DNA from: a virus
Virus record (IMG/VR): IMGVR_UViG_3300047284_000539
Coordinates: 1 to 25,981 of that record
Reading direction: 5' to 3' (one strand)
Length of the DNA stretch: 25,981 nt
The notes under the pieces were generated by a model. That model ran no database searches, was not told where the DNA came from, and was given only the letters and a program-made list of their open reading frames with translations. Made by a program: the position numbers and the translations under genes. Below, one piece after another: positions 894 to 2,108 of this stretch (its first letter is position 1; each line of letters begins with the position of its first letter).

Positions 894-922
894 TTGATTG
901 CTATATAAGCCAGCAGTATAAT
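894..922 (+). promoter_or_regulatory. sigma70-type promoter for the tRNA / structured RNA region
   Basis: TTGATT (894-899), a 17-nt spacer, then a perfect TATAAT (917-922). The start of transcription is expected near 929. No gene follows for more than 1.2 kb, so the promoter should drive the RNA region and the tRNAs. Confidence 0.6.
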
Positions 923-1087
923 CCCTTCTGTGGGACACAAGGATTAATCAAGACAGGGACGGCTGCCAGACTGTCTGGATGACTTAGAGCAGGATCGAGC
1001 CTGGGAATGATCTAAAAGACAGGCACTATAGTGAAGTGTGTTGGTATGCTGGAACCCCCGGGGGATATATCGCTTGACAAGTTCTAT

Positions 1088-1161
1088 TCCGGTGTGGTAT
1101 AATGGCATTACGGCGGTCTCCAAAACCGTTGACGGGGGTTCGATTCCCTCCACCGGAGCCA
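1088..1161 (+). tRNA. tRNA-Trp (anticodon CCA)
   Basis: Acceptor stem TCCGGTG (1088-1094) pairs with CACCGGA (1151-1157), discriminator G1158, CCA tail encoded at 1159-1161. The D arm is GTA/TAC around TAATGGCAT. The anticodon loop is CTCCAAA, giving anticodon CCA, and the T loop is TTCGATT on a GGGGG/CCCTC stem. The CCA tail also forms the start of a 16-bp helix with 1279-1294. Confidence 0.95.
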
Positions 1162-1294
1162 TATTGAAGCACATTCGACACTGCGGCGTTCTGTCCATCC
1201 CTGATTCGAAGCAGGATATCGCCAAGCATTTCAAGCCCCGGTCGCTCCGGTCTGGTGCCTAAAAAAGAGATGGAAGAGTGTGTTTCAATATGGT
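1158..1294 (+). repeat. long inverted repeat A (16-bp helix starting in the tRNA-Trp CCA tail)
   Basis: Bases 1158-1173 (GCCATATTGAAGCACA) pair with 1279-1294 (TGTGTTTCAATATGGT), 14 Watson-Crick and 2 G-U pairs. The enclosed 105 nt hold a further hairpin (ATCC...GGAT inside GGCG...CGCC, about 1184-1222) and CCGG/CCGG. The 5' arm shares TGAAGCACATT with element C. Confidence 0.7.
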
Positions 1295-1307
1295 AAGAGT
1301 TCCGTAG

Positions 1308-1405
1308 CTAGTGACGATACACTAGACGCTACCTATTTCGATAGAATAGGCGGGTTATGCATTACACGATAATAATGCTTAGTAAGACACCTGACTGATA
1401 GGTGT
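1308..1405 (+). repeat. run of four perfect 6-bp hairpins
   Basis: Four hairpins follow each other with 6-8 nt loops: CTAGTG/CACTAG (1308-1325), CCTATT/AATAGG (1332-1350), GCATTA/TAATGC (1359-1378), ACACCT/AGGTGT (1387-1405). Such density is not expected by chance and supports a folded RNA rather than a decayed gene. GAGTGG/CCACTC (1428-1468) continues the series. Confidence 0.65.
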
Positions 1406-1468
1406 ATGACGGGGGAATAACAACCCAGAGTGGGGCCGGTATGCCTTGATACAGCTCAGTGGCCACTC

Positions 1469-1560
1469 ACCATATCCAAACGCATTGAGATTCGGAGTGA
1501 TCAACCGCGGCAATGCAGACAGCAGGAGATGAGCGACCTGCCAGTGCGTTTGGATATGGT
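1469..1560 (+). repeat. long inverted repeat B (perfect 16-bp helix)
   Basis: ACCATATCCAAACGCA (1469-1484) is the exact reverse complement of 1545-1560. The 60-nt interior has GCAGG/CCTGC (1522-1541) and TTGA/TCAA (1485-1504). The ends (ACCATA / TATGGT) match those of elements A and C. Confidence 0.75.
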
Positions 1561-1732
1561 AACGCCGAGTTCCAGTGCTGGTGATGTACATCAGCCCACA
1601 CCATTGCGGTAACAAATGGGGATCGACACAGGCCATACAGGTGTCAGGTATTTGTCTACACCCATGGTAGACATGACGGTGGATCACGACCCAGACAGGG
1701 GCCGGTGGAATTGAACAGCCCGGTAGCCTGTC

Positions 1733-1849
1733 ACCATAGTGAAGCACATTGCTCTCAGCAACACAGAGCATCCGCGGAGAGGACTGATCACGCTGGATTA
1801 TTTATCCAGGCTGCACATTCGACGACTCAGCAGTGTGCTTCACTATGGT
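1733..1849 (+). repeat. long inverted repeat C (perfect 16-bp helix) directly before tRNA-Tyr
   Basis: ACCATAGTGAAGCACA (1733-1748) is the exact reverse complement of 1834-1849. The interior has hairpins TGCTCT/AGAGCA (1750-1770) and CTGGAT/ATCCAG (1793-1809). It ends 5 nt before the tRNA-Tyr acceptor stem. Confidence 0.75.
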
Positions 1850-1854
1850 TTAAT

Positions 1855-1948: not shown

Positions 1949-2025
1949 TCCCCAGTAGCACAGTTGGTAGTTGCGCGGCACTGTTAATGCCGATGTCGTT
2001 CGTTCGAACCGAACCTGGGGAGCCA
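1949..2025 (+). tRNA. tRNA-Asn (anticodon GTT)
   Basis: Acceptor TCCCCAG (1949-1955) pairs with CTGGGGA (2015-2021), discriminator G, CCA encoded at 2023-2025. The anticodon arm is CGGCA CTGTTAA TGCCG, anticodon GTT. The T arm GTTCG/CGAAC is perfect. Confidence 0.95.
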
Positions 2026-2030
2026 TTTAT

Positions 2031-2108
2031 AGTACGGTGGCAGAGTGGTCAAATGCAGCGGTCCGCAAAACCGTAAAGCCGTGAGTTCGAATCTCACCCG
2101 TACTTCCA
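2031..2108 (+). tRNA. tRNA-Cys (anticodon GCA) with C at position 33
   Basis: Acceptor AGTACGG (2031-2037) pairs with CCGTACT (2098-2104); discriminator T2105 is the known Cys identity base; CCA encoded at 2106-2108. The anticodon arm is GCGGT CCGCAAA ACCGT, so the anticodon is GCA. Position 33 (base 2064) is C instead of the nearly universal U. The T arm GTGAG/CTCAC is perfect. It may be a working odd tRNA or a decaying one. Confidence 0.88.

What the first reader, a model, noticed from the sequence alone, without database searches (positions are those of the whole stretch)
929..1850. Large, densely folded phage RNA region around tRNA-Trp: GOLLD/ROOL relative or new class
About 920 nt have a clear promoter, no credible gene, and more than ten perfect hairpins plus three 16-bp closing helices. 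Random or decayed DNA would not keep so many exact complementary arms. Size, phage origin, tRNA neighbours and an embedded tRNA match what is known of GOLLD and ROOL, whose function is unknown. By eye I cannot match a known class, so a new one is possible.
Basis: partly seen in the sequence, partly recalled or inferred. Interest (0 to 1): 0.85.

Follow-up and report, generated by a model that had tools for sequence, protein, structure and literature searches.

The report
Swappable RNA hairpins between phage tRNAs
The folded region is a short piece of a previously undescribed kind of phage gene array, in which tRNA genes and unknown RNA pieces are joined by standard 18-base-pair hairpins that begin exactly at the tRNA's CCA end and are swapped as units between unrelated phages; this hints at an unknown way for large phages to process or exchange sets of small RNAs.

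Summary
The three long helices at 929-1850 are real: the three most regular long inverted repeats of the window. The many small hairpins are not more than chance by energy. It is not GOLLD or ROOL (Rfam negative even at E=5).

Following the stems outward gave a large undescribed family. Of 186 hairpins, 97 start exactly at the encoded CCA of a tRNA. An unbiased test of 1381 tRNAs found 130 CCA-anchored stems, shuffled control 0; in 52 the stem sequence differs, nearly always with compensating partner changes. Helix length is fixed (about 18 bp). Loops and linkers form over 100 families, always in the same orientation to the tRNAs (118 similar pairs to 0). Identical loops sit between unrelated flanks, and similar flanks hold unrelated loops, so the units are exchanged as cassettes. 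Every checked record of at least 160 kb is T4-like by gp23. No match was found in cultured phages or plasmids.

Best reading (mechanism inferred): RNA connectors that punctuate a tRNA/ncRNA transcript, mounted as exchangeable cassettes.

The parts
894..922 (+). sigma70-like promoter site (TTGATT-17-TATAAT), start expected near 929
   Evidence: consensus scan; inferred only
929..1087 (+). leader segment with a lone 5'-arm-like stretch (CTATAGTGAAG at 1026-1036), probably a decayed unit
   Evidence: repeats with module C; no relative found
1088..1161 (+). tRNA-Trp (anticodon CCA); its 3' CCA 1159-1161 is the start of stem A
1159..1293 (+). hairpin A (arms 1159-1176 / 1276-1293)
   Evidence: 17/17 pairs; relatives in L159, L263, L268
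1294..1468 (+). linker B, a non-tRNA module, paralogue of linker C
   Evidence: 3' part in L220, 92.6% over 54 nt
1469..1560 (+). hairpin B (arms 1469-1487 / 1542-1560)
   Evidence: relatives in L179, L098, L220 with compensatory arm changes
1561..1732 (+). linker C, a non-tRNA module
   Evidence: 95.9% identical over 169 nt in L098 and 94.5% over 55 nt in L179
1733..1849 (+). hairpin C (arms 1733-1753 / 1829-1849)
   Evidence: relative in L098 with compensatory arm changes; its stem type CCATAGTGAA also sits at tRNA-Glu/Gln in L271-L274
1855..1939 (+). tRNA-Tyr, no connector hairpin behind it
1949..2025 (+). tRNA-Asn
2031..2108 (+). tRNA-Cys

Best explanation
Shown: the region is a short tRNA/ncRNA array built from a family of strand-specific RNA connector hairpins. 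Each is a stem of about 18 bp whose 5' strand starts at the CCA of the upstream tRNA (or right behind a non-tRNA RNA module) and whose 3' strand ends in UGG, often directly at the first G of the next tRNA, around a loop of about 30-110 nt that differs between families; loops, linkers and tRNAs are exchanged between T4-like phages as cassettes with borders at the stems. Inferred: the array is transcribed as one polycistronic RNA; the stems fold as it is made, keep neighbouring RNAs from misfolding and hide the CCA ends, and are the cleavage points for a double-strand-specific or structure-specific host RNase, releasing tRNAs, linkers and loops as separate stable RNAs. The repeated arms also give the phages' recombination short homologies for swapping cassettes. 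The conserved loops and linkers are probably small RNAs with jobs of their own.
For: Exact registration with tRNA ends: 97 of 186 hairpins begin on a tRNA's CCA, 34 end at offset -1 to the next tRNA start. Unbiased test: 130 of 1381 CCA-bearing tRNAs carry a CCA-anchored stem, shuffled control 0; 0 of 30 tRNAs in unselected loci. Covariation at stem positions 11-17, which the search pattern left free: 1076 of 1099 cells paired versus mean 989.6, maximum 1008 in 1000 shuffles; helix length sharply 17-20 bp. 52 CCA-anchored stems with other sequences keep pairing, e.g. CCATTAATTTGTGATCTGCA/TGCAGATCACAAATTAATGG. Strand specificity: loops 66:0, linkers 52:0. Cassette exchange: L152/L172 loop 67/67 with unrelated flanks; L209/L166 flanks 79/91 and 70/90 with unrelated loops. 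Other stable RNAs use the same connector: GOLLD in two phages is followed 4 nt later by a stem with the distal ACATT/AGTGTG signature. The reversed pattern finds 0 matches in 22 whole records while the true one is present in 15 of them.
Against: No RNA data: neither transcription nor cleavage is shown. Only about 9% of CCA-bearing tRNAs in these arrays carry a connector, so it is not a general need for tRNA maturation; it is uneven by tRNA type (Glu 27 of 70, Lys 18 of 60, Gln 17 of 50; Ser 0 of 100, Met 0 of 105). No RNase III found in 11 large records, so the nuclease would have to be the host's. Loops are sequence-conserved rather than mere spacers (8.2% differences against 10.8% in arm positions 11-17), which a pure processing role does not explain.
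Confidence: 0.5

Rival explanations
1. The hairpins are DNA elements: recombination sites or mobile palindromes (like attC sites of integrons or MITE-like elements) that insert behind tRNA genes; the RNA fold is a by-product.
For: Whole hairpins move as units with precise borders and one loop occurs twice in one phage; arms are near-constant while the middle varies, as in attC.
Against: Orientation to the tRNAs never varies, 118:0, although recombination between inverted arms would invert loops; arms change in step by compensation, with a frequent U-G pair at position 16; no recombinase was identified (not searched systematically).
Confidence: 0.2
2. The loops and linkers are a toolbox of small effector RNAs, for example decoys against host nucleases that attack tRNA; the stem is a standard stabilising handle.
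For: Over 100 loop clusters, those with members in several phages conserved in sequence; a T-arm motif in 21 of 157 loops, 0 on the other strand, 0.01 expected; connectors favour tRNA-Glu, Gln, Lys and Leu.
Against: Loops are not more stably folded than shuffles (mean z -0.34); no target or partner known. Not exclusive with the best explanation.
Confidence: 0.25
3. One large ornate RNA of GOLLD/ROOL type, perhaps a homo-oligomeric cage with tRNA-Trp in its linker.
For: Size, tRNA neighbours, conserved hairpins; GOLLD and ROOL are phage RNAs near tRNA islands (PMC12286853).
Against: No Rfam match at E <= 5; the parts occur apart and in other combinations elsewhere; L004 carries only hairpin B, linker C and hairpin C; GOLLD lies as a separate module in such arrays.
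Confidence: 0.06
4. Decaying tRNA genes and leftover spacers without function.
For: 13% of loops hold a T-arm motif; some spacers look like broken tRNAs.
Against: Stems kept at 17-20 bp by compensatory change in many sequences; linker C almost unchanged between phages that share no detected protein in the compared pieces.
Confidence: 0.04

Closest known systems
GOLLD RNA (RF02032)
   Same: Phage-borne noncoding RNA in tRNA arrays, function unknown; occurs as a neighbouring module in three phages of this family
   Different: GOLLD is one ~800-nt cage-forming RNA; these are exchangeable ~90-nt hairpins and short linkers with no match to its model
ROOL RNA (RF03087)
   Same: Large structured phage RNA near tRNA islands
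   Different: No match in the window or in 36 records searched
T4 stable RNAs C and D (rnaC, rnaD)
   Same: Stable RNAs in the tRNA cluster of a T4-like phage; rnaC holds a T-arm-like GGGTTCGAATCCC
   Different: No CCA-anchored stem at any T4 tRNA; no array of connectors
Integron attC sites (from general knowledge)
   Same: Near-constant complementary arms around a variable middle, behind each cassette
   Different: Here strictly strand-bound, anchored to tRNA CCA, compensatory arm changes; no integrase shown
Mitochondrial mobile hairpin elements (RHE, double-hairpin elements; PMC2800124, PMC5910586; titles and abstracts seen only)
   Same: Repetitive mobile hairpins in intergenic regions of compact genomes
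   Different: Phage tRNA arrays, register with the tRNA CCA, standard stem with changing loop

Membership tests
GOLLD (RF02032) | match to the covariance model of the conserved 3' domain | tested here: not met
   cmscan of 840-2160 to E<=5 gives only tRNAs and chance matches; the model works in the same setting, 207.5 bits in L247
GOLLD (RF02032) | ~800-nt single RNA forming a 14-mer cage | not testable with these tools
   needs cryo-EM; modular exchange speaks against a single fixed RNA
ROOL (RF03087) | match to the covariance model | tested here: not met
   for the window; for 36 relatives (nothing rang in the control genomes, so that part is weak)
OLE, HEARO, group I/II introns, any other Rfam family | match to the Rfam model | tested here: not met
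   all 4227 families scanned
Connector-hairpin family defined here | stem of about 17-20 bp starting on a tRNA CCA | tested here: met
   hairpin A starts at tRNA-Trp CCA 1159-1161; B and C have the same kind of stem behind linkers
Connector-hairpin family defined here | compensatory changes in the stem | tested here: met
   five copies of the window and L004 pair 17/17 with double changes at positions 6, 7, 8, 11, 13
Connector-hairpin family defined here | loop shared with other phages in other surroundings | tested here: met
   loop A in L159, L263, L268; loop B in L098, L179, L220
attC-like recombination site | recombination by a tyrosine recombinase at the arms | not tested
   orientation bias 118:0 is against free inversion

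The most novel reading that the evidence does not exclude
Uncultured T4-like phages carry an RNA counterpart of an integron: a shared library of more than a hundred families of small RNAs, each mounted on a standard 18-bp stem that docks on the CCA end of a tRNA gene, exchanged between phages as cassettes and used during infection, possibly against host systems that attack tRNA.
Probability: 0.3. Interest if true: 0.95.

Novelty: categorically new. Interest (0 to 1): 0.85.

Why it matters
Why phages carry large tRNA arrays, and what the unknown stable RNAs in them do (GOLLD, ROOL, T4 RNAs C and D), are open questions. A standard connector that joins tRNAs, GOLLD and unknown RNAs, and along which they are swapped, gives a grammar for these arrays. 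It makes dozens of new RNA families easy to find by looking behind tRNA CCA ends, and makes processing and exchange testable with one reporter construct. The family is in at least 120 IMG/VR contigs and was not detected in the cultured-phage records searched.

Tried and rejected
Rfam at gathering and at E<=5: only tRNAs and chance matches. blastn of the region against 50,697 phage records: matches fall on tRNAs. Patterns on linker motifs in viral contigs and genome contigs gave only L004 plus chance hits (checked in 16, 24, 41, 44); the L009 hit is a tRNA. Tracking the neighbouring ORF 2167-2415 gave 25 loci; the tRNA gaps looked at in three of them hold ordinary genes. One search used an arm pattern that was one base too long and found L142 only because that stem has a bulged A; this lucky hit opened the family, and one search then used the correct arms. 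Inverted cassettes: none. Phage-encoded RNase III: none in 11 records. T4 RNA ligase 1 family: none, but the control did not ring either, so uninformative. The hypothesis that loops are simply very stable folds: rejected. Eight literature searches found no description of such hairpins; subscription journals are mostly missing from that library.

Full report
1. The observation. The window is a 25,981-bp IMG/VR record from a T4-like phage: its gp32 is about 60% identical to those of cyanophages such as Synechococcus phage S-MS29. tRNA-Trp (1088-1161), Tyr, Asn and Cys are real. The three long helices (1159-1176/1276-1293, 1469-1487/1542-1560, 1733-1753/1829-1849) are the most regular long inverted repeats of the window. 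The many small hairpins are not exceptional by energy: mean z in 200-nt windows is -0.43 inside and -0.38 outside; only windows with whole long helices stand out. The region is also a repeat array: linkers B and C are paralogues with the same order of small hairpins and changed pairs.

2. First relative. A pattern from the linkers found L004 (fetched again as L098), a 50.5-kb phage contig with no protein detectably shared with the window in the compared stretches, yet 88.5% identical over 384 nt covering hairpin B, linker C and hairpin C, again just before tRNA-Tyr. Linker C is almost unchanged, while the stems differ by compensating changes: the five copies of window and L004 pair 17 of 17 with double changes at positions 6, 7, 8, 11 and 13.

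3. The family. An arm pattern then led to L142, a 191-kb phage whose tRNA cluster holds at least five hairpins of the same stem, several starting exactly on a tRNA's CCA. The same pattern read backwards gives 0 in 22 whole records, where the true one is found in 15 of 22; the six records fetched without regard to the hairpin have none. 120 of 122 loci examined carry tRNAs.

4. Anatomy. Among 186 oriented hairpins 97 overlap the CCA of an upstream tRNA exactly, and 34 end at offset -1 to the next tRNA start, so that their final GG is G1G2 of that tRNA. The helix is 17-20 bp, mode 18, and random beyond. Stem positions 11-17, which the pattern left free, pair in 1076 of 1099 cells; shuffled arms give 989.6 on average and 1008 at most in 1000 shuffles. 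Without any stem pattern, 130 of 1381 tRNAs with encoded CCA in these loci are followed by a CCA-anchored stem, a clearly separate peak; shuffling gives 0. The loci were selected for having at least one such hairpin, so this is a test of form, not of prevalence. Loci not chosen by the hairpin have 0 of 30. 52 of the 130 stems have another sequence and still pair. The distal half (ACATT/AGTG with a frequent U-G pair at position 16) recurs on stems whose proximal half differs, which suggests a sequence-reading partner (inference).

5. Strand and exchange. 157 unique loops form 112 clusters; 66 similar pairs all lie in the same orientation to the tRNAs and none in the opposite. Non-tRNA linkers between hairpins: 60 unique, 31 clusters, 52 pairs to 0. 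So the RNA strand matters. Cassettes are exchanged: L152 and L172 share a loop 67/67 with unrelated 90-nt flanks; L209 and L166 share flanks (79/91, 70/90) around unrelated loops; the same tRNA-Arg end precedes several different loops. Some loops are tRNA-derived: a T-arm motif in 21 of 157, 0 on the other strand.

6. Other modules and carriers. GOLLD lies in 3 of 49 records; in two, a connector stem starts 4 nt behind it. In 18 loci the Rfam rows shown are tRNAs, one GOLLD, a group I intron in a tRNA-Leu and a phage tmRNA (86 lower-scoring rows were not shown). gp23 is present in 11 of 29 records, including all of 160 kb or more, so the carriers are T4-like. Two arrays and the arms alone have no match in 50,697 named phage records, nor the arms in 72,556 plasmids; BLAST is at its limit for 19-nt arms. 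T4 has stable RNAs C and D in its tRNA cluster but no connector.

7. Mechanism. Shown: structure, register with tRNA ends, strand-specificity, exchange. Inferred: one transcript, cleavage at the stems by a host enzyme (no RNase III found in 11 large carriers), release of tRNAs and of the loops and linkers as small RNAs, and use of the arms as short homologies for exchange. The loops are conserved at least as well as the arms (8.2% against 10.8% differences) and so likely have functions of their own.

8. Verdict. Not a GOLLD or ROOL relative, not junk, and not one giant RNA, but a small member of a widespread array type that I could not find described. Interest is high; mechanism confidence is moderate.

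Noticed in passing
L247:7302-7765 (also L276, L277, L278): GOLLD RNA inside connector-bearing tRNA arrays of phages; in two of three a connector hairpin starts 4 nt behind it.
   Followed up: partly
L220:666-1021 (-): A phage tRNA array carries a match to beta_tmRNA and, overlapping, to permuted tmRNA.
   Followed up: no
L142:4150-4348 (-): Group I intron in a tRNA-Leu whose CCA starts a connector hairpin.
   Followed up: no
window:1074-1103: A perfect TTGACA-18-TATAAT promoter whose -10 lies in the D arm of tRNA-Trp; possibly coincidence.
   Followed up: no
window:1055-1064: Ten-base palindrome CCCCCGGGGG in the leader, just before tRNA-Trp.
   Followed up: no
L142:5412-5536 (-): A connector stem encloses a nearly complete tRNA-like sequence with an odd anticodon loop.
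   Followed up: no
tRNAs of L142 and L151-L274: Connectors are frequent behind tRNA-Glu, Gln, Lys and Leu and absent behind Ser, Met, Asp and Ala in the unbiased test.
   Followed up: no
L151, L152, L157, L163 and others, stems CCATATAAAA / TTTCTATATGG: A recurrent stem variant keeps an A-C mismatch at position 8 (15 of 52 non-standard stems).
   Followed up: no
L098:2571-4648 (-): The L004 phage contig appears to carry alkyl hydroperoxide reductase-like genes (AhpF- and AhpC-like by eye, untested).
   Followed up: no
L179:1-277 (-): About 118 nt with a T-arm and ending in CCATA is inserted between hairpin B and linker C, seemingly a cassette insertion.
   Followed up: partly
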